From Thalassiosira profunda (taxonomy: Eukaryota; Bacillariophyta; Thalassiosirophyceae; Thalassiosirales; Thalassiosiraceae), in contig JALLAP010001084.1 of the NCBI GenBank assembly GCA_036939355.1, positions 1 through 10,210 of the forward strand: 10,210 nucleotides of DNA, in the 5' to 3' direction. The translations under genes were made by a program, and so were the position numbers. Each line of letters opens with the position of its first letter. Position 1 is the stretch's first letter. Below are positions 1 to 10,210 of this stretch, in pieces. Below the pieces are notes generated by a model, which made no database searches, had not been told where the DNA came from, and worked only from the letters and a program-made list of their open reading frames with translations.

Positions 1-1250
1 CGATCTCGCTCCCACGCCAACTGAGGCGGTGGTCCGCGCCGATCATCGTATCTTCCCGGTGGAGGGCCACGCCGATCGTCGTACCTCGGCGGCCCGCCAT
101 ACCCTCCGCGATCATTGTAGCTTGGTGGCGGCGGCCCGCGGTAACCTCCTCCTCCGTATCCACCACGGTCTTCGTAACGCCCCCCACCCCCGCCATATCC
201 GCCCGGGCCTCCCATCGGAGGGCCTCCCCGATATCCGCCGCCCCCGCCGTAATGGCCTCCAGGAGGCCCCATTCCACCCGGCCCTCCCGGGCCCATGTGG
301 CCCATTCCCGGCGGCGGCGCCTTGGACGGGTCGTACCGCCCGGGTATCACCACGTTCTTGTCCTTGCCCCCGAGGCGCGTCCCACCCAATCCGCCCCCAA
401 ACTTGCGCGGCAGCCAGTTTGGGACCGTGTGTCCCCGCTCCACATCCACAACAATACTCCTCCCCTCCAACCGCATCCCATCGGCGGCCCGGAAAGCCCG
501 TTTCATGTCCTCCTCGTGCTCGTACTCCACAAAGGCGTAGCCCTTGCTCCGCCCCGTCTTCTTGTCCTTGACCAATTTCAGATCCTTCACGGGCCCGTAG
601 GCCTCCATCTCCCGCAGCAACTTTCGCTCGGTGACCTCGTAGGCCAATCTCCCCACGAAGAGGGAGTTGTAGCAGTTCATCCCGTTGGTGAACTCTCCCC
701 CGCACTCGGCCTGCTCTTTGCGGTACGCCTCGATCTGCGGGGCGAGGGTCTTTTCGTTCTCGGCCTTCTTGGCCTTGACCTTTTCTTCCCTCAGAGATTT
801 GGGAGTGGGATTGATCTTCCGCTCGGGGGGCGCGGTCCGCTCAAAGTGGTGGAGGAACGCCGCCGCCCCCGACAGACCGGCGCCGCGCTTCTTCTTGGGA
901 AACGACGTGGGGATTTGCGAGACGCCCGACGGCCCCACGGCCTTGCCATCCCCACTCACATCATCTCCACTCTTCGCTTTGTCCTCGTCGTCCGTCACGT
1001 ACACCTCGTCCACGCGCACGTGGCGCTTGAAAGGCGGGAGGTGCTTCAGCGGCGGGTTGGGCATGAACGTCGCGCGGATGTGCGGGGGCATCATCATGAT
1101 GGCGGGGCCGGAGCCGTTCCCACTCATCTGCCCCTTGGGCTGCAAATTGCAAAGTGCATGAGACGACATCACAAAAGGCAAGCTCAGCTTGGCCGGCACA
1201 AAACACACAGCAACTCTTACAGTCATCGCCCTCTTCTTGTTGAAGCTCAT
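1..1250 (-). CDS. SNRNP70: U1 small nuclear ribonucleoprotein 70 kDa (U1-70K), 3' end beyond window
   Basis: Core protein of the U1 snRNP, which defines 5' splice sites in the nucleus; it binds stem-loop I of U1 snRNA. Exons are 1250-1221 and 1139 to the edge, giving 389 visible residues, still open at base 3. The short first exon reads MSFNKKRAMT and joins in frame to PKGQMSGN. The N-terminal arm (about 30-130) has the proline-rich segment NPPLKHLPPFKRH and a charged KAKKAEN helix that resemble the U1-70K arm contacting the U1 core. The RRM carries RNP-2 LFVGRL (170-175) and RNP-1 KGYAFVEY (209-216). It is followed by the family hallmark VDVERGHTVPNWLPRKFGGGLGGTR, which begins near 240 and ends at R265. 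The tail from about 285 is rich in Gly, Tyr, Arg and Pro, with RYDDRRGPPP repeats; no RS-dipeptide domain is visible before the edge. Family identity is very secure. The start in exon 1 is preferred over the internal ATG at 1127 because of the clean intron and an ACC-ATG context. Confidence 0.95.
   Translation of the reverse strand, partial: MSFNKKRAMTVRVAVCFVPAKLSLPFVMSSHALCNLQPKGQMSGNGSGPAIMMMPPHIRATFMPNPPLKHLPPFKRHVRVDEVYVTDDEDKAKSGDDVSGDGKAVGPSGVSQIPTSFPKKKRGAGLSGAAAFLHHFERTAPPERKINPTPKSLREEKVKAKKAENEKTLAPQIEAYRKEQAECGGEFTNGMNCYNSLFVGRLAYEVTERKLLREMEAYGPVKDLKLVKDKKTGRSKGYAFVEYEHEEDMKRAFRAADGMRLEGRSIVVDVERGHTVPNWLPRKFGGGLGGTRLGGKDKNVVIPGRYDPSKAPPPGMGHMGPGGPGGMGPPGGHYGGGGGYRGGPPMGGPGGYGGGGGRYEDRGGYGGGGYRGPPPPSYNDRGGYGGPPRYDDRRGPPPGRYDDRRGPPPQLAWERD
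1140..1220 (-). other. U1-70K intron 1 (81 nt, in-frame, stop-free)
   Basis: The donor is ACT|GTAAGAGT and the acceptor is TTTGCAG|CCC, both strong. The length is a multiple of three and the reading frame across it has no stop, so an unspliced transcript would add 27 residues after residue 10. Splicing is favoured by the splice-site quality and because the intron translation (VRVAVCFVPAK...) looks like nothing in U1-70K. Retention as a natural variant cannot be excluded. Confidence 0.8.
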
Positions 1251-1442
1251 GGTGCGAGAATTGCTCGGCGGTCCAGGTCCAGCGGCGTGGAGCGGCGGGG
1301 CGCGGGAGGTTGATTTGAGGGGGTTGTGCTGGGGTGTGTCTGTATGTCGTGTCCGATTTATGTCCACTGTCCACAGTCTCATTTTTCGTCGCGCCTCCCG
1401 CCCGCCTCCGTGCATCGACGACCTCCGCTCCGCCGCTCCGCC
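1251..1442. promoter_or_regulatory. Probable bidirectional promoter, U1-70K / REX1-B gene
   Basis: The 192 bp between the two divergent start codons must hold both 5' UTRs and at least the core promoter of each gene. It is GC-rich near the U1-70K side and pyrimidine-rich near the plus-strand gene. I see no TATA box. An in-frame ATG at 1344 would extend the plus-strand protein by 33 residues, but the extension is not conserved-looking and 1443 has the better context (CCGCCATGT). Confidence 0.5.
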
Positions 1443-2376
1443 ATGTCCCCTCCGACCCCCACCTCCGCGCCAGGCCGCGGCATACATATCCGCGATGCCC
1501 TCTCCATCCTCGCAGCCCGCACCGAGCGGGGCGGCGAGGATCTCGCCTCCGCGTCGGTGCCAGACGCACTGAAGGAGATGGGCCAGACGATCGACATTGC
1601 AAAACAGATGGAGTTTGCCCAACCCAACGCCGCGGGGTGCGATTGCGCGAAGAATGGCAGTGCATTCAATGGTGCTGATGCCGCGGGGGGCAACGTGCTC
1701 AGCGAGGAGGAGAAACAAAAGCACGAGGCCGTGAAGGAGGAGCGGGCGCGGCGGGGGGAGGAGATCCGTGCCCAGCTGCGGACGATGGGGGTGGGGGAAC
1801 TGCTGGGGATGATCTTCGGGGCGCAACAGGAGCGGGTGGCGACGTACAAGGCGTTTGAGGAGTGAGTTCGACTGTGAGGGGTATCGTGGGTGTGCGCATT
1901 GATGCATGCACCTCGATTGTTCTAGGAGTGCATGTCCCGTGCATCTAATCTGACTCCACTTACTTCGATAATACAGCGGACTGTCCACCATCCTGGCATC
2001 GGGCAATATCACCACCTACCCCGCCCTGTGCGCCAAGGTCACGGCCACGTTCTCGGTCCTCAGCGACACCATCAACTGTGCCAAAGCAACGCTCATTGAA
2101 AGACACAACCGGAAGGACATCTCAAATCTCATATCCCAGCTGCAGAAATCGGAGGGAGAAAAGCTGAACCTCACGGCGGCGTTGCATTTGGAGCGGTTGC
2201 GGCTGCGGAATTCGGAGTTGGACGCGTCGTTGGCGTCGGGGGAGGGCGACGATCGAACGATGGGGCTGTTGAAGGAGGGAATACAATCGCTGGAGCGGAG
2301 GATCGCTGGGGCCGTCGAGTCGATCAACGAAGCGCTCGAGGAACTGCGCTGCATTGCCGCGGACGAGAGCGAGTGA
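1443..2376 (+). CDS. Probable REX1-B (required for excision) domain protein
   Basis: Two exons, 1443-1861 and 1977-2376, encode 272 residues. The region LLGMIFGAQQERVATYKAF at the end of exon 1, continuing after splicing into EDGLSTILASGNITTYPALC and a VTATFSVLSDTINCAKATL helix, matches my recollection of the REX1-B DNA-repair family (Pfam DNA_repr_REX1B). Its pattern is Q-x-x-R-x-x-x-Y-x-x-F, then a short Y-x-x-L loop, then a V-T-x-x-F helix. The family is named for a Chlamydomonas excision-repair gene; its biochemical role is unclear to me. The N-terminal third (1-80) is low complexity. A charged helix (EEEKQKHEAVKEERARRGEE) leads into the domain. The C-terminal region is strongly helical and Leu/Glu-rich, with coiled-coil potential (about 180-268). 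There are no membrane segments or signal peptide, so a soluble nuclear or cytosolic protein is likely. The gene structure is well supported; the family name is moderately supported. Confidence 0.75.
1862..1976 (+). other. REX1-B gene intron (115 nt)
   Basis: Donor GA|GTGAGT, acceptor ATACAG|CGG, with branch-like CTAAT and CTGAC near 1945-1953. Removing it joins GA+C in frame. It contains an inverted repeat, CATGCAC (1905-1911) and GTGCATG (1928-1934), that could fold a 7-bp stem between donor and branch site. Confidence 0.9.
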
Positions 2377-2440
2377 AGGCGTGCGGCTTTTGATGAAATA
2401 TGAAGTTCTATACATTATATGCATGATTCTTTGAGACAGC
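2377..2440. other. 64-bp convergent intergenic gap
   Basis: AT-rich spacer between the stop codons of the REX1-B gene (plus) and the redox gene (minus). Both 3' UTRs and polyadenylation sites must lie here or run into the opposing gene. I see no canonical AATAAA on either strand; only weak AT-rich motifs such as TATACATTATATGCATG occur. Confidence 0.6.
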
Positions 2441-5400
2441 TTACGGCGCCACTTCAATGGCAGTGCCAAACCTGACGGATTGCTCTTTGGCTCCAGCACC
2501 ATTGTTTCTTTGCTTGCGTGTCGCTTTATCCATCTCCGAGCTCGACGATTGTGATGGAGGAGGATCTGACTCTGTCGAAAGGTCCAACCCAGCATTATCC
2601 CCGGAGTTCTTGCTTGTCGAACCACTATTCCCAGATCTGCTGGAAAGGTCCGCGCCGTTGGGCAGGAACTGCGACAGTTTCGACAAAGGCACCGTTCCCT
2701 CGGGGAAACGGAAGATTTGTTCCTCAATAAGCCCCGCTGTTTGCAAGCAATCGCTCATACCAGACTCAAACGAGCTATGTCCACAGAGCGCCACGAGAAA
2801 CCCCTGCGTCAAATCGAGTTGACGCGTTCGATTTCCCAAGGCGCGCAGATTCTGACCATCTGAGGATCTTAAGGAATCGAGGCTCCTTCTCTTTTGGGCA
2901 CGCGCCGTTTTCTCTTCCGAAAGAAAGGTGTAGAGCGATGCGTCGTCAAGTAGTAACACACGTTCATCCGATACGTGCTCGAACAATTGCAGCTTGGCTC
3001 CTAACTCCCTTCCGAGAGCGAGCGCCGATTCTCGTGTGGGAGTGTACTCATCGACCAAGAAGCTGACCGCATCACTTCCACGAAAGCATTGGCTCTCTTT
3101 GTCTTGAATCAACTTGTCCTCGAGCACCAGCCCGGTCTTCAGCGTTTCGCCGATTCTCTTTAGATTGCTGTCCTCGGCACCTTCGTTGTCATCATCATCC
3201 AAGACGAAATCTCGTTCAGTCAACGATCTTTGGGCGTCGTCGCTTTCTGCATGAAGCCAGGAAAGCAAAGTGCTGACTGTCTTTTGGTGAAGCATGCCGT
3301 TCGTTCGGTAGAGCCGCAAAAACGCTTCCCTCGCTTCGCATTCGGCCTCATCTTCGTCCGAGGAGTGAGTCGGCTCTGGAAGCGCGTCTCTATCGCCCAA
3401 AATCTGGTATCGAAAGTGCTCAGAGATAGCCTCGCGCTCGGGCAAATTCAAGGCCTCTTCGAAGGTCCCTTTCTCGCCCTGAATCATCCAAACAAGTGTG
3501 ATTTTGGGTGGACTTTCCATCTTGAGGAAGAAATCAATGAGTTGCACGGCAGGTGTGATCCCTGTCCCTTGCACAATGAGACATGCATTCGTCCAGGACT
3601 TTGCAGCCAGCTTCTCTAGATAGGGCTGGAGAGTTACGGGCGAGTTGAAACGGGTAAGCTGAACTGTCGATGGACAGCCAGAGTTTCGTTACAACAGAAG
3701 TCTTACCTTGGAAGCCAGCGGGCCTTTGACCATCATGGGCTTGCCTGGCGTTCTTGTAGCAAGGAACCCACTCATTTTCCCTCCTGGTACCAGCGAGATC
3801 AAGAAGTCGTAGACCGTAGTATCGCCCCTGCTGGACCGTGACAGGCTTTTGTTGAAGAGTGGCAGCAAAGTCTGATGGCTCTTCGGCTTTATCTTGCCTT
3901 GGGCGAGGTAGCAACGGGAAGTATTGTATGGCCGCTCGAATGCATTTCCATCGTCGTCAAGGGCGCGAAAAATGAAGGTAGAAGTCGGCAGTGGCGTGCC
4001 GAGAACTGCATCCAATTGAGTTTCGGTCTTGAGAGACAGGCTGAGTCGAATGAGGCACTTCTCATCCGAAGACGAGTCACCAGAGATAACTTCATGCTCG
4101 ACCACCTTGGCATTACGGAATACGTGCCCAAGGAGTGCCGTGCTCCGATCTGGCTTCTGCTGAAAGAGAGAATGCCTGTCGAACACCGATCCTCTCCTTC
4201 TCTTCGATTGTGCCATCGTTCCCCTCTTCTTGACACTTAGAGTGGAGCCGATGTCCTGCCGCTCCATTCTCCATTTAACGAGCGGCCGTAAGGCTCGAAG
4301 AGCATTCTTGGAATGCTTGTGCCGTTGTCCTCCGACGTCGAGCTCTCCAGTGAATTGCCTCGTGATGTCGCTGCCCACAGCAAACCTAAGCACGTTGGCG
4401 CCGCCGGGATGCACATCAATGAACGAACCAATGTCGATGACATAGCCGTCAACTAGAGAAAGCGCGCTTCCGTGTCGGGTGAGAAACAGGAAGTTGTCCA
4501 CAGTCATTTCCGGAAGGTCTTTGTCGTCCAGGGTTAACAGGCTGCCGGTTCCTTGCATCGCCGCCTCAACGTTGTCGTGTTTCCTGAACAGATTTTCCCG
4601 CCGAGTGCGTATCTCCGTAATGACGAAGGTCAGTATCACAACAGCCAGCCATGGAAAGAAGAGATATTGTTTGATGAACGCGAAAAACTCCAGGTCATAG
4701 CCCATACTGATGGTGGTTGAAGAAAAGAATGTTACCTCAACGCTGTCCGACTCGTAAGGGCTGATTTGTACACTGCAAACGGGCATTGAGTGATGAGCAA
4801 TGTGTATCAAGGAACATTGCCAGCAAGCTTTCCGACTCACAGTCCTGTATAACAGTTGTACCATGCACAACCGGTTAACATCAATCCTCCACAACGGTGG
4901 GAAATGATAACGGCTCGTTCCAGCGCCATGGATTTGGTCCTCTTGGCCAGAGTCCTCTTCCTCCTCAACTCGCCTGCCACAAAATTTAGTAGGGTAAGGT
5001 GAGACGCAGAAGTGTATGGGTCGATTTGCAGCAGAGAGTACACTTACCGGTGACAACCATAAAGAGGACGCAGATCATTATGCCCAGACCGAAACTCTTG
5101 TGCTTGCTGAAGGTGGAGCTCTCTGCGTCCACTGTCCCAAACGATGTTCCCTCGACCGAGACCAGCGCGGCCGTGACCAGCGTCAGCATCAATCCACCGA
5201 TGACGCCAACAAGAGTAATGTGGACCCTGAGCCTCCAGGATTTGTGCTTGTAGTATCGCACGACGTAAATGGCAATTGGCGCCAAAAACAGCCACGCAAT
5301 GAGCAAGGTGGCGCCATGTAGGGCAAACAGCCCGGCTTGGGCGGAATCATCCGCGCAGGAAGCGGCCACTCCCAGGGCGAGATTGGTGGTACCGCCGGTT

Positions 5401-7613
5401 CTACGGGAGAAGCCGTGGGCCGCATTGGCATCCGTGGGATTGTAGGCGGCAATGAAGTCGACGTCGCCCTCGGGCGAAAAGCAGTTGCCACTGCTGCTCT
5501 CTCCATCAGAGCACAGCTCTGCACGCACAGTAACGTACGATCCTTCGTCGGAGGCGCACGAATCCAGAACCGTCAGATAGTTGTTTCGTCCGCAAACAGG
5601 ACGCACGTGACGCTCGCCCGGCGCGACGCAGCAAGAGAACGGCCCAGAGTCCTCGACTGGCTTCTCGAGAGTGGAATCGTCAATGGGCAGAGGGCAAGCT
5701 TCCTGCGATGCCCCCGGCTCCTCATTGGACTCGCAGAGCCATATTTCCGACCCCTTCATGGCAGTCGTTCCCCAACCAAGGCCAATGTACCCGCCACTGA
5801 CCCTCTCAAGAGTGCTCATCGTAAAGACCATGTGGTCCGTCTCTTCTCTCCAGCGGACAGTCATGTCGCCATCAAACAGGTCCATCGACCCAGCATCGCC
5901 AACAAGCGATGCGCCTCCACTACCACTGCCACCGCCAGACGGCACGATCGCAAACAGGTCCTCCGGAAACCAAAAGTCTCCATCGCCCCACGCGTCTCGT
6001 ATCAACTCCGACAACGTGGGCAGTTCTGCAATCTCTGTGGCATTCAATCTCGAGCGGTAGTATAGCCGGTCACCATCGCGCAGCCTCGTGAACTGCTCCC
6101 GCATCGACGCCTCGTTCAGCGGCCCCAATTCACGGTGCTTGCTGACTGGATTCTCTAGCATGGCGCCCACATAGGCATCGACGTCGTCGACGTTGCCCTC
6201 GCCGTATAGCCCTTCCAGCATGGTTGCAACAGACACATCGCCATTGGCCACGTCAAGGAAGGACTCCGCCCTGGGCAGTCCAAACCACTCCCGTGCATCG
6301 TTGTAGGTAGCGATTCCGTTGTCCCGGCCACGTTGCAAGTTCGCAACCACGCTGCCACCAGTAAAAACCGTCATGTCATCGACGAAATGAGCATCCGGCG
6401 CTCTCGTGACATCGTGCGCAAGCCCTCGCAGGATGGTGGCCATGCCCTCCCTCACTCCACCCTCGGCGAGCTGCGGGACGACCGCTTCGGTCTTGTTCCA
6501 AAGGTCCCGCATGAGCATGGGATCCCTCGGCGTTGGCTCCCAATTCTCGTCTAGAAATCTCGCCAGACCACTCATCCCAGAGTGGCCGTACCGGAAGCTG
6601 CATGTCGAAAAGAATACATCGATCGATGCATCCACATCTGGATCGTATCCCTCGTATGGTTCCAGAGGATCGCCCAGCACTGCCGGGATGTATTTTGTTT
6701 CGTGTGTCGCTTGATAGACGGCAATGGCATCCATCCGTGCCTTTTGGAATAGTCGTTCATCGTCCCAGTCGGGATGCTGTTGCTCGTGAAACTCGGCTCG
6801 TTTGTTGTGGTAGTGCAAAAAGGTCGACAGCAGAGCAAAGTCCGCAGGAAGCCTCCTCATGGTCGTGTCGGCCACCAAATACAGCCCAGTTTCGGGATCG
6901 ATGGGGGGAATTCCGGTGGTGTAATAGATTTTCATCTTCCCCCCACGGCCAGTTCGGAGCTTGAGGTATTCCGGAGAGGAGGGAGGAGCGTTGCCATAGA
7001 CGTGATCCATATCCAGCCACGCTGTTGCAAAATTGATTGGCTCGCCCGTACTGCTAACGTTGCTTTCGTCCTCGCCACCACCGTCAGGATATGTCCTCGC
7101 CGCCCTGTAAAATTCCATCTGTTGCTGTCCCGCCGGACAAAACGGCCCCCTTAATTCAACAAGATCGCACTCTATTGGCATGGGCCTCGATTGGTCCGTC
7201 TGCGTTGTGCGCGTAATATCCCTCGTCACGAAGTGCCCAAAGCTCATCAACAGCTGGGACGCCCGCTCGTTCGGCCGCGGGGTCACCCTTTGGAAGAGCT
7301 CCACCAGGATGCGACGCGCCGAGGGCAGGTCGAGGCGGGGATGATGCCACACAGGGTCATCTTCCTCGTCGCCCAGATCGATGTAGGAGTGCAGCGCGGG
7401 GTGGGCGCGGATGCGCGGGGTGCCGAGCGCACCCCGCCTGTGGTGGCGGGGGTGGTTTCGGGCACCGTCGTGGGTGTAGTGCGCGGGGAGGTCGGCCCCG
7501 GGCGGCACAGCCTCGGCGCTGTCCATGATATCCAATAGCTTCGAGAGAGGAGAGGCAAGAATATTGCATGAGAAATGAGAGATGAGATTTGCGATGGAAA
7601 TAGTCGGCCTCAT
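2441..7613 (-). CDS. Membrane redox fusion: haem peroxidase-DOMON-b561-cyt b5-FAD/NAD reductase with internal DEP
   Basis: Exons 7613-5048, 4973-4841, 4772-3707 and 3658-2441 encode about 1,660 residues. Peroxidase fold (46-555): NERASQ helix, NFATAWLDMDHVYGN, FRYGH with proximal His344, and NLQRGRDNG. A Gly/Ser linker leads to DOMON (577-745: GYIGLGWG, AMKGSEIW; likely haem ligands Met619 and His733). The b561 core has about five membrane helices, with His766, 798, 838 and 881. Cytochrome b5 (986-1068) has HPGG at His1021 and HKHS at 1051-1054. The FAD domain has RPYNTS (1180-1185), GGKMS (1230-1234) and VKGP (1248-1251). The NAD(P) domain has GTGITP (1286-1291) and CGHSSF (1547-1552), separated by an insertion carrying a DEP domain (1426-1504). 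A Ser-rich tail follows. Family logic puts the reductase and b5 in the cytosol and the peroxidase and DOMON outside, so electrons should flow outward. The start is uncertain: ATG 7613 gives a weak signal-like segment, ATG 7526 none, and an upstream exon is possible. Domain calls are firm; substrate and product are unknown. Confidence 0.88.
3659..3706 (-). other. Redox gene intron 3 (48 nt)
   Basis: Donor TCCAAG|GTAAGA, acceptor ACAGTTCAG|CTT, phase 0. It joins KGPLASK to LTRFNSP, linking the FAD domain to the NAD(P) domain. A competing AG lies 5 nt upstream of the chosen acceptor but would shift the frame into a stop. It is the shortest intron in the window and contains an in-frame TAA, so retention would truncate the protein before the NAD(P) domain. 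Confidence 0.9.
4773..4840 (-). other. Redox gene intron 2 (68 nt)
   Basis: Donor GGACT|GTGAGT, acceptor CCGTTTGCAG|TGT. Splicing joins CT+T to read YTGLVQISPY, completing the W-x-N-x-x-x-GL end of the fourth b561 helix. Confidence 0.92.
4974..5047 (-). other. Redox gene intron 1 (74 nt)
   Basis: Donor ACCG|GTAAGT, acceptor TTGTGGCAG|GCG, with a near-perfect branch site CTACTAAA shortly before the acceptor. Splicing joins G+GC to give VVTGELRRKR, which carries the frame from the third b561 helix to the exon holding the fourth haem His (881). Confidence 0.92.
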
Positions 7614-7627
7614 AATTATCAAGAGCA

Positions 7628-7704
7628 GTCGACGGCAATTGCATAGGCATCGAGAGGTATTTGCAATTTGCAAGCCATCGCGGTCGACGGCAATTCAAGT
7701 CGAC
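7628..7704. repeat. GTCGAC-containing direct repeats
   Basis: GTCGACGGCAATT occurs at 7628-7640 and exactly again at 7683-7695, with a third GTCGAC at 7699-7704. GTCGAC is itself a palindrome. The cluster lies just upstream of the redox gene and could be a transcription-factor site array or lie in a 5' UTR or intron. Confidence 0.7.
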
Positions 7705-7932
7705 GCCTTCATCAAGAAACAATCGACGCGGCAAGAGAAGGTGGTGCACTTACTCCTTCAATCAAACCTCCAACTCGGGGCGCCAAACATTAACTCGCAC
7801 TGCCTCTGCACCACTCAGCTCCCCGCCCTCTCTCCGCACACCGCGAATGCCAGCAGGATTTGGTAGAAGGGGGGCTACAAATCCACCGCCGCGCCGCCCA
7901 GCCGCCCAGCACCCAGTAGCCAGCAACGGAGA

Positions 7933-7947
7933 GGGGGGGGGGGGGGG
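7933..7947 (+). repeat. G15 homopolymer run
   Basis: Fifteen consecutive G residues in the divergent promoter region, 10 bp before a CACGTG box. The exact length is prone to sequencing error. Confidence 0.9.
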
Positions 7948-7957
7948 AATTTGGGTG

Positions 7958-7963
7958 CACGTG
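7958..7963. promoter_or_regulatory. G-box (CACGTG)
   Basis: Palindromic bHLH/bZIP core hexamer, embedded in GTGCACGTGTCTC. A hexamer is expected by chance every few kilobases, so only its promoter position makes it notable. Confidence 0.35.
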
Positions 7964-8043
7964 TCTCAAGATGGTGTCTTAAACTGAGTCCCGGGCAGCT
8001 GGCGGAGCGGTACTGTCGTATCATAAAGTACTAATTCCTAAGT

Positions 8044-8050
8044 TGACGTC
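8044..8050. promoter_or_regulatory. CRE-like bZIP site (TGACGTC)
   Basis: Seven of eight bases of the palindrome TGACGTCA, about 335 bp before the HSF start codon. It is the kind of core bound by bZIP factors; binding is not shown. Confidence 0.35.
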
Positions 8051-8084
8051 CAAATTAATACTGCCCATTCGGTACTCAGAATTC

Positions 8085-8369
8085 ATGTGCCTCAGTCCGA
8101 GCTCTGCGACAACGCGTCAAAGCAAGGCAAAAAAGCAGAAGCAAGGTTCTCGGTTCCGCACAAAGCCAACGCCACGACAAAGAGAGAAGGTGCACCAACC
8201 CTCACCAACCCTCAACCACAACGCGAGCGCGGCGAGGGGAGGCGGACAAGCCGGCCAAGACACCCGCGGGATCGGTCGCACCGAAGAGACATCGGCGGAG
8301 CCTCAACGGCCGAGCACAAGAAGGACCATCTACCTACAGCCATTGCAAATTGCCACGCCACGCAACTAA
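8085..8369 (+). other. Possible upstream ORF in the HSF leader
   Basis: An ATG at 8085 opens 94 codons (MCLSPSSATTRQSK...) ending in TAA 15 nt before the HSF ATG and in the same frame. The translation is basic, Ser/Thr/Pro-rich and resembles no domain, so it is more likely untranslated leader or a regulatory uORF than a real product. It matters only if transcription begins upstream of 8085. Confidence 0.25.
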
Positions 8370-8384
8370 CAACAACGGCCGACC

Positions 8385-10210
8385 ATGAGCGACGAGGGCA
8401 AGGGCAAGGCCGACCCCGGTGGGGACGCCGGGATGCGCTCCCTCCTCGACGCGGCCATGGGCCTGACGAACCTCCACGGCGGCGGCGGGGACAAGGCGGC
8501 GGCTGCCGAGCAAGAGCCACAGCAGTCCGCCGAGGCCGAGGCCGAGAAGGCCGACACCCCGACCAAGTCAAAGGCGAGCACCAAGGCCAAGAAGGCGTCG
8601 CCCAAGAAGGGCCAGAAGAAGTCATCGCCCCTCGAAGAATCTGCAGCCTCGGCCATGGCGCCCCAGGGCCAGAAGATGCCCTTTGCTCCATCACGCCCCT
8701 TTGAAGACCGGATGCCCTTCCGGCAGGGCGCGGATGATATGATGTCCATGAGAGGAATGATGATGCCCGGCATGGGAATGGGAATGGGGAGGATGGCCGA
8801 CATGTTCATGCCCGAGATGGGAATGATGTCCGGCATGCCACCAATGGGACGGCCCTTCCCTCCCATGTCCATGCCAAGCAGTATGCCCATGATGTCCAAC
8901 AACGATCACTTCTACCCCATGTCGGCGGAGGAAATGCCAGGCGTGCCGATGCACCGCCGGCCGTCAATGGAATCCATGCCGCTGCCCCGGGGGGCGACGT
9001 ACCGCTACCCCCACCCGCCGCGGTACACCGACAGGGAAAAGGGGGCGCCGTGGGGACGTCCAAAAGTGGGGTTGCGGTTCGGGGACACGACCTCCAAAGA
9101 GGCCCGGGCGCTGGACGCCGCGGTCGCCCCCTCGCTGAGCTTCCCCGAGACGTTGTTCCAGATCGTGTCGGACCCGGCCAACGCGGAGATTGTCAAGTGG
9201 CTGCCCCACGGGCACGGCTTTGTGGTTAGAGACAAGGACCGGTTCGCCGACGAGATCTTGACGCGGTACTTCGACGGGGCCAAGTTCACGAGCTTCACCA
9301 GGGTCAGTAATTTTCCTCTGCATCCGGCCTCTAGATATCGCCATCATACGATGCTAATCCTCTTCTTTGCTCTGCAGCGGTTGAAACGGTGGCACTTCGA
9401 GCGGATTTCAAGGGGTCCGGAGATGGGGGCGTATTACCACAAGTGAGTGGCTTGCCTTGTCACATCTCTTGTGCACATCTTGTGCACACTTCTGGAGCTC
9501 CATCCATTCTAACTTATGGCCCCAAAACAGGAACTTCGTCCGCGATCAGCCCGGCCTAGTCCTCAACATGATCTACGGGAAGGACGGGGACGACGCCATG
9601 GACGAACCTTCGCTGTCCGCGGCCAAGACGAAGCGGAAGGAGCAGAGCGAGAAGCGGAAGCGGCAGTATCAGGCGCGGGCGCCCCGGGACGACGCCGCGG
9701 TGGCCAAGGCGCTGGCGGAAAGCCGACGGAGCAGCGACCAGAGTGCACAGAGCCAGGCGTCGGGCGATGCCAAGAAGGCGATGGGGCAGGCGCGCGACGG
9801 ATCCGCGGCGGCGGCGGCGATGCCGTACCACCCCAAGGACTTTGGGATTGCCAATCGGCACCTGGCGCCGCCGTCGAAGAAGGCAAAGCTGTCGCCGGGG
9901 AGGATGGCCCAAGCCGAGGGCAGCATGGCTTTTTGCGTGTGCGGCAATACCATGTCGGGGAAGGAGCGGCGGTGCGCCGAGTGCACCATGGTGAGTGTCA
10001 AATGCTGCTGTCATCATTGCAGTCATTGCGAGTAGACCCTGCTCACTCAGTCGTTGCCGTGGCAGCAACACAAAAAGTGGCAACAGGAGGGCCTGGGCCG
10101 GAGCCCCCCGTACGAGAATGCGCGGATGCTCCAGGCCATGAAAGATAGGGGAGATCAGCAGCGATGGGAGGAGATGCAGCGGATGCAGCGCTTCTCTCCC
10201 AGTCGCCGGG
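8385..10210 (+). CDS. Heat-shock-factor-type transcription factor, 3' end beyond window
   Basis: Exons 8385-9302, 9378-9442, 9531-9990 and 10066 to the edge give 529 visible residues. The HSF-type winged-helix DNA-binding domain spans about 253-343: FPETLFQIVSD, IVKWLPHGHGFVVRD, SFTR|RLKRWHF (recognition helix) and RGPEMGAYYHKNFVRD. HSFs bind inverted GAA repeats in the nucleus. Unlike metazoan HSFs, the domain follows a 250-residue N-terminus with a Lys-rich stretch (61-80) and a methionine-rich, Gly/Pro-rich region (119-198, 27 Met in 80 residues). After the domain come basic NLS candidates KTKRK...KRKR (360-372) and KKAK (444-447), then CVCG-x9-CAEC (Cys463, 465, 476, 479). No heptad HR-A/B oligomerisation region is evident. 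Canonical helix residues RQLN-x-YGF are replaced by RRLKRWHF, so target preference may differ. The start is the first ATG of the open frame, with context GACCATGA. Confidence 0.9.
9303..9377 (+). other. HSF intron 1 (75 nt, in-frame, stop-free)
   Basis: Donor AGG|GTCAGT, acceptor TTTGCTCTGCAG|CGG, branch-like GCTAATC at about 9353. It interrupts the DNA recognition helix exactly between SFTR and RLKRW. Retention would insert 25 hydrophobic-rich residues there without a frameshift. Removal restores the HSF motif, so splicing is certain in functional transcripts. Confidence 0.93.
9443..9530 (+). other. HSF intron 2 (88 nt)
   Basis: Donor CACAA|GTGAGT, acceptor CCCAAAACAG|GAA, with branch-like TCTAACTT about 20 nt before the acceptor. 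Splicing joins AA+G and restores YYHKNFVRDQ. It contains the repeated phrase CTTGTGCACA. Confidence 0.93.
9991..10065 (+). other. HSF intron 3 (75 nt, two possible acceptors)
   Basis: Donor ACCATG|GTGAGT, immediately after the CxxC of the Cys4 motif. The acceptor at 10065 (GTGGCAG|CAA) continues as QHKKWQQEG; an acceptor at 10050 (CTCACTCAG|TCG) would add the five residues SLPWQ in the same frame. An in-frame TAG makes full retention truncating. Confidence 0.8.

What the first reader, a model, noticed from the sequence alone, without database searches (positions are those of the whole stretch)
2441..7613. Single-chain transmembrane electron wire: peroxidase-DOMON-b561-b5-flavin reductase
One reading frame carries every module needed to move electrons from cytosolic NAD(P)H to an extracytoplasmic haem: NAD(P) and FAD domains, cytochrome b5, a four-His b561 core, DOMON, and an animal-type haem peroxidase fold. 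Dual oxidases pair a peroxidase domain with a NOX core, and plant CYBDOM proteins pair DOMON with b561. I do not know of a described protein combining all of these. It suggests an independent solution to dual-oxidase-like chemistry: extracellular oxygen, peroxide, metal or quinone reduction. All junctions are supported by phase-correct introns with good splice sites.
Basis: partly seen in the sequence, partly recalled or inferred. Interest (0 to 1): 0.9.

Follow-up and report, generated by a model that had tools for sequence, protein, structure and literature searches.

The report
Single-chain electron wire with peroxidase-like cap
One diatom gene, as spliced by prediction, encodes a single membrane protein that joins a flavin reductase, a cytochrome b5, a b561-like membrane core, a DOMON domain and a peroxidase-like domain, and it would carry electrons from inside the cell to a haem outside, where it likely reduces oxygen; relatives occur in other diatoms and in chytrid and blastoclad fungi, and our paper searches turned up no description of the family.

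Summary
The minus strand of 7613-2441 carries a four-exon gene (1649 codons, three GT-AG introns) for peroxidase-DOMON-b561-b5-FAD-NAD, with DEP inserted in the NAD fold. DOMON, b561 and NAD rest mainly on relatives and ligand patterns, because Pfam scores for them in the window are weak or absent.

It is one gene: intron 1 cuts the membrane core, and a transcript-derived Thalassiosira minuscula protein spans every junction. A second, syntenic genome copy (90% identical DNA) keeps all exons (dN/dS 0.136). The same order recurs in diatoms and in chytrid and blastoclad fungi. All eight DOMON, b561 and b5 haem ligands are identical in 15 of 15 proteins.

The main correction concerns the peroxidase. 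Its proximal haem histidine is kept in 19 of 20 members, but the distal histidine in 5 of 16 and the catalytic arginine in 5 of 18; one protein has both. The window has Arg and Thr there. Human DUOX1 shows the reverse: it lacks the haem ligand. So the domain is likely a haem-binding terminus fed by the wire, not a working peroxidase. Oxygen as acceptor is inferred. No signal peptide is evident in this lineage. No paper found describes the family.

The parts
2441..7613 (-). whole gene, four exons, 1649 codons (1620 aa if translation starts at 7526)
   Evidence: open frame, GT-AG introns; homologue P0001 92% identical over 98% of the query
7524..7526 (-). alternative start codon ATG (MDSAEA...), equivalent to the start of the T. 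profunda record P0001
   Evidence: 2-nt and 1-nt gaps between the two genome copies in 7613-7527, which together keep the frame
6033..7475 (-). animal haem peroxidase-like domain (aa 47-527); proximal haem His344 kept, distal His and catalytic Arg places are Arg131 and Thr251
   Evidence: PF03098 E 1.1e-77; residue tables; fold of homologue P0005
5379..5897 (-). DOMON domain (about aa 573-745), ligands Met619 and His733
   Evidence: Pfam in relatives only; profile-profile 96.8%; Met and His 15 of 15
4601..5327 (-). b561-like five-helix core (about aa 763-957, across introns 1 and 2) with His766, His798, His838, His881
   Evidence: four helices called by hydropathy, the fourth in order set by hand from the alignment; PF03188 in 5 of 10 family segments; 4 His 15 of 15
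4974..5047 (-). intron 1 (phase 1)
4773..4840 (-). intron 2 (phase 2)
3626..3706 (-). intron 3 (phase 0)
4292..4504 (-). cytochrome b5 domain (about aa 990-1060), His1021 and His1053
   Evidence: PF00173 E 7.6e-8; genome search hit 4340-4477; both His 15 of 15
3707..4135 (-). FAD-binding barrel of b5-reductase type (about aa 1113-1255), RxY and GP motifs
   Evidence: PF00970 E 0.0011, below cut-off; profile-profile 98.0%
3386..3625 (-). first part of the NAD(P)-binding fold (aa 1256-1335), GTGITP
2924..3094 (-). DEP domain (aa 1433-1489 by Pfam) in an insertion of about 190 residues within the NAD fold
   Evidence: PF00610 E 7e-10
2702..2806 (-). last part of the NAD(P)-binding fold (aa 1529-1563), CGxxxF motif
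   Evidence: alignment; model strands and helix after the insertion at pLDDT 73-83

Best explanation
The gene encodes one chain with an NAD(P)/FAD reductase of cytochrome b5 reductase type, a cytochrome b5, a four-histidine b561-like core, a DOMON domain and a peroxidase-like domain that keeps its proximal haem histidine, and it is predicted to move electrons from cytosolic NAD(P)H through five haems to the outer face, where the peroxidase-like haem likely reduces molecular oxygen to superoxide or hydrogen peroxide. Shown by sequence: the chain, the domain order, the ligand residues, the loss of the distal peroxide-activating residues, low dN/dS between two genome copies, and a charge pattern that favours DOMON outside and b5/flavin inside. 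Inferred: the route NAD(P)H, FAD, b5 haem, inner core haem, outer core haem, DOMON haem, peroxidase-like haem; haem occupancy; oxygen as final acceptor; DEP as a membrane- or partner-binding regulator of the reductase. It works like a dual oxidase but is not one: its membrane core, DOMON and b5 modules are of other families.
For: Single frame with three clean introns; transcript-derived P0003, genome-derived diatom P0001 and P0002, and six fungal proteins (P0007, P0010, P0071, P0072, P0073, P0075) have the same order. DOMON Met/His, four core His and two b5 His identical in 15 of 15 proteins. Proximal His 19 of 20, distal His 5 of 16, catalytic Arg 5 of 18, both in 1 of 15 readable at both. 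Inner loops carry 5, 8 and 5 Lys/Arg, outer 0, 2 and 1. dN/dS between the two copies 0.136 overall, 0.104 peroxidase, 0.094 core, 0.037 b5. NAD part fits cytochrome b5 reductases. The 16 family peroxidases tested plus P0025 form one group apart from DUOX, vertebrate, arthropod and the genome's stand-alone peroxidase (99/95).
Against: The terminal acceptor was not tested. No signal peptide is evident at either start codon or in a spliced upstream exon, although six relatives have hydrophobic starts, so the outside location of the first 760 residues is not shown for this lineage. P0009 has lost the proximal His yet keeps the architecture, so the last haem may be dispensable. The b561 name rests on weak matches. 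No haem-bearing model or inter-domain distance was obtained. CYBDOM protein CRR of Arabidopsis reduces ferric iron, a rival acceptor (PMC10784552, passages). The genome also has ferric-reductase/NOX-type proteins (C6, and C408 below cut-off) that could make superoxide.
Confidence: 0.5

Rival explanations
1. A ferric (or cupric, or quinone) reductase: electrons leave at the DOMON haem as in plant CYBDOM proteins, and the peroxidase-like domain is a cap that binds substrate or partner without redox work.
For: CYBDOM protein CRR has DOMON Met/His and two core His pairs and promotes iron reduction (PMC10784552, passages); these ligands are invariant here while the peroxidase site decays; P0009 lacks the proximal His.
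Against: The proximal His, its Arg neighbour and an Asn or Asp partner are each kept in 19 of 20, and the peroxidase domain is about as constrained as the core (dN/dS 0.104 against 0.094). All six hits of the fungal search carried a peroxidase, though that search bars proteins under about 720 residues and scored only 7985 candidates.
Confidence: 0.27
2. A true transmembrane NAD(P)H peroxidase: wire electrons reduce hydrogen peroxide at the peroxidase haem and clear peroxide outside the cell.
For: Sorochytrium P0007 keeps distal His, Arg and Glu, so an ancestral form may have been active; P0004, P0005, P0051 and P0054 keep the distal His alone.
Against: 14 of 15 members readable at both sites, the window among them, lack the His-Arg pair; the same genome has a stand-alone peroxidase with His, Arg and Glu intact (C1154).
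Confidence: 0.1
3. A redox receptor: the peroxidase-DOMON ectodomain senses an outside oxidant or ligand and reports through the wire and DEP rather than delivering electrons in bulk.
For: Metagenome protein P0025, in the same peroxidase group, joins peroxidase and DOMON to a class C GPCR seven-helix domain; DEP is a signalling domain by general knowledge.
Against: A full NAD(P)H reductase and invariant haem ligands imply catalysis. DEP has a rather high dN/dS (0.377) and was not seen in P0004, P0006, P0007, P0009, P0010, P0012, P0048 or P0071-P0075; in P0002 and P0003 it scores below cut-off.
Confidence: 0.1
4. Two genes, or an annotation artefact that joins a peroxidase gene to a reductase gene.
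For: The window has no RNA evidence of its own; Pfam scores of the middle modules are weak.
Against: Intron 1 lies between core His838 and His881; transcript-derived P0003, diatom records P0001 and P0002 and six fungal proteins have the same order; the second genome copy keeps it.
Confidence: 0.02

Closest known systems
Dual oxidase (DUOX)
   Different: b561-like core instead of the NOX/ferric reductase core, added DOMON and b5, DEP instead of EF-hands; DUOX1 lacks the haem ligand histidine and showed no haem density there (PMC7794343, passages), whereas this family keeps it and loses the distal side
CYBDOM proteins (plant CRR/HYP1)
   Same: DOMON with Met/His ligands, five helices, two His pairs (PMC10784552, passages)
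   Different: CRR works in an ascorbate-dependent manner; this protein has its own NAD(P)H-FAD-b5 module and a peroxidase-like cap
Ncb5or and cytochrome b5 reductases
   Different: not joined to a b561-like core (general knowledge); no DEP inside the NAD fold
DOMON-bearing ferric reductases of oomycetes and Naegleria
   Same: extracellular DOMON joined to a transmembrane haem core and flavin reductase (PMC3591440, passages)
   Different: ferric reductase core; peroxidase-like domains are listed there only for DUOX

Membership tests
Dual oxidase / NOX | ferric reductase type membrane core (PF01794) | tested here: not met
   no PF01794 up to E 1 in exons 1, 3 and 4; genome matches lie on C6 and C408, not here
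Dual oxidase / NOX | N-terminal peroxidase homology domain | tested here: met
   PF03098 E 1.1e-77
Dual oxidase / NOX | EF-hand region | tested here: not met
   none listed in Pfam scans of exons 1, 3 and 4 or of P0001-P0003
Dual oxidase / NOX | production of superoxide or hydrogen peroxide | not testable with these tools
   needs protein
CYBDOM | DOMON with Met and His haem ligands | tested here: met
   Met619 and His733, 15 of 15; domain call from relatives
CYBDOM | cytochrome b561 core: five helices with four haem His | tested here: inconclusive
   helices and His met; PF03188 only weak, 5 of 10 segments, not the window's; no solved b561 found
CYBDOM | N-terminal signal peptide | tested here: inconclusive
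   none evident in the window or in P0001, P0002, P0003, P0005; hydrophobic starts in P0004, P0006, P0007, P0010, P0071, P0075
CYBDOM | ascorbate as cytosolic donor | not testable with these tools
   own NAD(P)H-FAD-b5 module makes it unlikely
Catalytic haem peroxidase (peroxidase-cyclooxygenase superfamily) | distal His and catalytic Arg | tested here: not met
   Arg131 and Thr251 in the window
Catalytic haem peroxidase (peroxidase-cyclooxygenase superfamily) | Asp and Glu for ester-linked haem | tested here: not met
   Thr130 and Arg254
Catalytic haem peroxidase (peroxidase-cyclooxygenase superfamily) | proximal His with Asn partner | tested here: met
   His344, Asn425
Cytochrome b5 reductase fold | FAD barrel plus NAD fold with GxGxxP and CG motifs | tested here: met
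   Pfam scores below cut-off in the window

The most novel reading that the evidence does not exclude
A third architecture of eukaryotic transmembrane NAD(P)H oxidase, independent of NOX and of free CYBDOM: one chain with five haems and a flavin, built on a b561-like core, whose peroxidase fold has been turned from a peroxide user into the wire's oxygen-reducing end, and which supplies extracellular superoxide in diatoms and in chytrid and blastoclad fungi.
Probability: 0.33. Interest if true: 0.88.

Novelty: new variant of a known kind. Interest (0 to 1): 0.72.

Why it matters
Thalassiosira oceanica makes extracellular superoxide from NADPH, with a role in its photophysiology, and a glutathione reductase rather than a NOX has been implicated (PMC9519596, passages). 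A survey of phytoplankton genomes detected no dedicated superoxide-producing enzyme by its annotation terms, while noting genes annotated as NOX in some genomes and glutathione reductases in all (PMC10128935, passages). This gene is a concrete, testable candidate in the same genus. It would also show evolution reaching a dual-oxidase layout from a different membrane core, with the opposite half of the peroxidase site lost.

Tried and rejected
Catalytic Arg first misplaced: I took the Arg of the REHN motif for the catalytic one; the myeloperoxidase alignment led me to the DxRxxE motif, and searches use that column. Column 267 is not used.

Signal peptide: no in-frame spliced upstream exon with a hydrophobic stretch was found in either copy under my criteria (0 and 0 candidates); start 7613 gives a 10-residue hydropathy maximum of 1.44, within the spread of internal stretches (90% point 1.56). 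Left open.

Results against or beside my reading: a profile of the membrane segment finds no solved b561 up to E 1, only one short chance-like match; the DOMON profile finds dopamine beta-hydroxylase at E 0.46 and nothing else; the window does not appear in the own-genome search with PF03188. In one search fragment P0067 has Tyr in the DOMON His column; it is a 380-residue fragment whose start I take to be misaligned. Fragments and the 834-residue transcript protein P0047 were left out of the 15 used for the ligand count. P0075's alignment has no GxG motif and P0006 ends before the NAD domain. P0009, P0012, P0073 and P0074 lack part of the N-terminus. The distal-His count uses 16 of 20 rows with a letter there (P0073's is doubtful; without it 5 of 15), the Arg count 18 of 20, both sites 15 of 20. 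The window and P0001 are near-copies, so counts are not independent events. NG86 dN/dS is 0.586 for the last NAD part and 0.513 for the tail, where dS is only 0.03-0.06 and ratios are unreliable.

Rfam: nothing in the window. Viral contigs: 27 loci match, all within query residues 22-538, so the peroxidase part only. The exon 4 model has mean pLDDT 52 and the DEP part is poorly predicted; only the Rossmann parts (block means 65-87) were used. The P0005 model (pLDDT 73.5, pTM 0.61) gave lists filled by peroxidases, which do not test DOMON or the core. Model coordinates were not found in the Python box, so haem distances were not measured. The alignment search A2 returned no fungal member, so the fungal search was done separately; each protein search scored only its best 7985 to 7998 candidates. 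In the tree the family label needs two changes because P0025 groups with P0012 (92/88), and P0009, P0025, P0037 and C1154 are long branches.


Full report
What is there. On the minus strand, exons 7613-5048, 4973-4841, 4772-3707 and 3625-2441 join into an open frame of 1649 codons; all three introns are GT-AG and keep the frame. Pfam finds An_peroxidase (E 1.1e-77), Cyt-b5 (E 7.6e-8) and DEP (E 7e-10) in the window's exons; FAD_binding_6 (E 0.0011) and NAD_binding_1 (E 0.11) fall below their cut-offs, and DOMON and b561 are not listed. Several relatives score over cut-off for DOMON, FAD and NAD, and profile comparison of diatom with fungal segments gives 96.8% for DOMON, 99.3% for the membrane core, 99.4% for b5 and 98.0% for the FAD part. 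The core is called b561-like because PF03188 is the commonest Pfam match among 10 family segments (5 of 10, best E 1.4e-5), with four invariant histidines and five helices behind a DOMON domain; no whole protein scanned reaches the Pfam cut-off, and a profile of the segment finds no solved b561.

One gene, not two. Intron 1 lies between the third and fourth core histidines, so a split there would break the core. P0003, from a Thalassiosira minuscula transcriptome (taxid), and records from T. profunda and Stephanodiscus triporus span the junctions. In the window's own genome a second contig, C826, is syntenic at 90.1% DNA identity over 9.2 kb and carries the same four exons; its product is 99.5% identical to T. 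profunda P0001, so this genome is T. profunda or very close, with two diverged copies. Between the copies dN/dS is 0.136 for the whole, 0.104 peroxidase, 0.181 DOMON, 0.094 core, 0.037 b5, 0.110 FAD and 0.377 DEP; the last NAD part (0.586) and tail (0.513) have very few changes and are unreliable.

A family. Three protein searches gave fourteen further proteins that run from peroxidase to b5 or beyond: Thalassiosirales P0001-P0003, P0004 and P0006 of unnamed origin, P0009 (code Undpi1, which I read as the brown alga Undaria), chytrids Polychytrium (two) and Geranomyces (two), blastoclads Sorochytrium and Paraphysoderma (lineages), and metagenome proteins P0012 and P0074. All six hits of the fungal search, the query included, carried the peroxidase; proteins under about 720 residues could not appear there. 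In a maximum-likelihood tree the 16 family peroxidases used, plus P0025, form one group (99/95) apart from fish DUOX, vertebrate, arthropod, nematode and metagenome peroxidases and the genome's stand-alone one; P0009, P0006, P0004 and the diatom rows group together (100/98), with Paraphysoderma next to them (90/83).

The wire is invariant, the peroxidase site is not. DOMON Met619 and His733, core His766, His798, His838 and His881, and b5 His1021 and His1053 are identical in 15 of 15 proteins. The proximal peroxidase His344 is kept in 19 of 20 (lost in P0009), but the distal His in 5 of 16 and the catalytic Arg in 5 of 18; of 15 readable at both, only Sorochytrium P0007 has both. The window has Arg131 and Thr251 there, and Thr130 and Arg254 in place of the two haem-ester residues (myeloperoxidase numbers recalled). 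The genome's other peroxidase, C1154, keeps distal His, Arg, Glu and proximal His, with Asn at the Asp place. Human DUOX1 shows the opposite: the haem ligand histidine is missing and no haem density is seen (PMC7794343, passages); fish DUOX P0037 has Val there, and has lost the distal His and Arg too.

How it likely works. NAD(P)H reduces FAD, FAD reduces the b5 haem, and electrons pass by the inner and outer core haems and the DOMON haem to the peroxidase-like haem. The last haem has a proximal ligand and no distal acid-base pair, which suits oxygen binding and one-electron release better than peroxide splitting; oxygen as acceptor is an inference. The leading rival is ferric reduction at DOMON, as for Arabidopsis CRR (PMC10784552, passages). 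The unresolved point is membrane insertion: no signal peptide is evident here or in P0001, P0002, P0003 and P0005, though P0004, P0006, P0007, P0010, P0071 and P0075 begin with a hydrophobic stretch.

What is known. The listings of ten paper searches show no description of this architecture. A review of the peroxidase-cyclooxygenase superfamily speaks of seven main families, and the terms DOMON and cytochrome b do not occur in it (PMC4420034, term counts and passages). The ferric reductase survey lists DOMON and peroxidase-like domains as separate additions to the NOX-type core (PMC3591440, passages). The original DOMON papers were not seen. So I rate it a new variant of transmembrane NAD(P)H-driven electron export: like DUOX in layout, like CYBDOM in its middle, and not filed as a member of either.

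Noticed in passing
P0025 (metagenome protein), 1628 aa: Peroxidase (431-952) and DOMON (from 1002, 31.7 bits, just below cut-off) joined to a class C GPCR seven-helix domain (7tm_3, E 5e-38), with the DOMON Met and His kept; its peroxidase groups with the wire family.
   Followed up: partly
L013 (G000:C826), 1-9101: A second contig is syntenic with window 1109-10210 at 90.1% DNA identity, neighbours included, so the assembly holds two diverged copies (divergent haplotypes, homeologues or two strains).
   Followed up: partly
L014 (G000:C1154), about 1-2048: A separate stand-alone animal-type peroxidase with a hydrophobic start and distal His, Arg, Glu and proximal His in place.
   Followed up: partly
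window 8385-10036, + strand: Divergently transcribed heat shock factor gene (HSF_DNA-bind E 2.1e-10) that shares the upstream region of the wire gene.
   Followed up: partly
window 3-1250, - strand: U1 snRNP 70K-type gene (RRM_1 E 1.8e-21, U1snRNP70_N E 2.7e-7) with a glycine-rich tail.
   Followed up: partly
window about 1456-2376, + strand: Gene convergent with the wire gene; its last exon matches DNA_repr_REX1B (E 1.7e-15).
   Followed up: partly
G000:C6:44483-44812 and C1147:5652-5996: The genome also has a ferric-reductase/NOX-type protein (PF01794 E 3.3e-18) and one ordinary cytochrome b561 (PF03188 E 3.2e-21).
   Followed up: no
PMC8027222 (Seminavis robusta), passages: A haem peroxidase gene and a DOMON gene respond to sex pheromone in a pennate diatom; whether either belongs to this family was not checked.
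   Followed up: no
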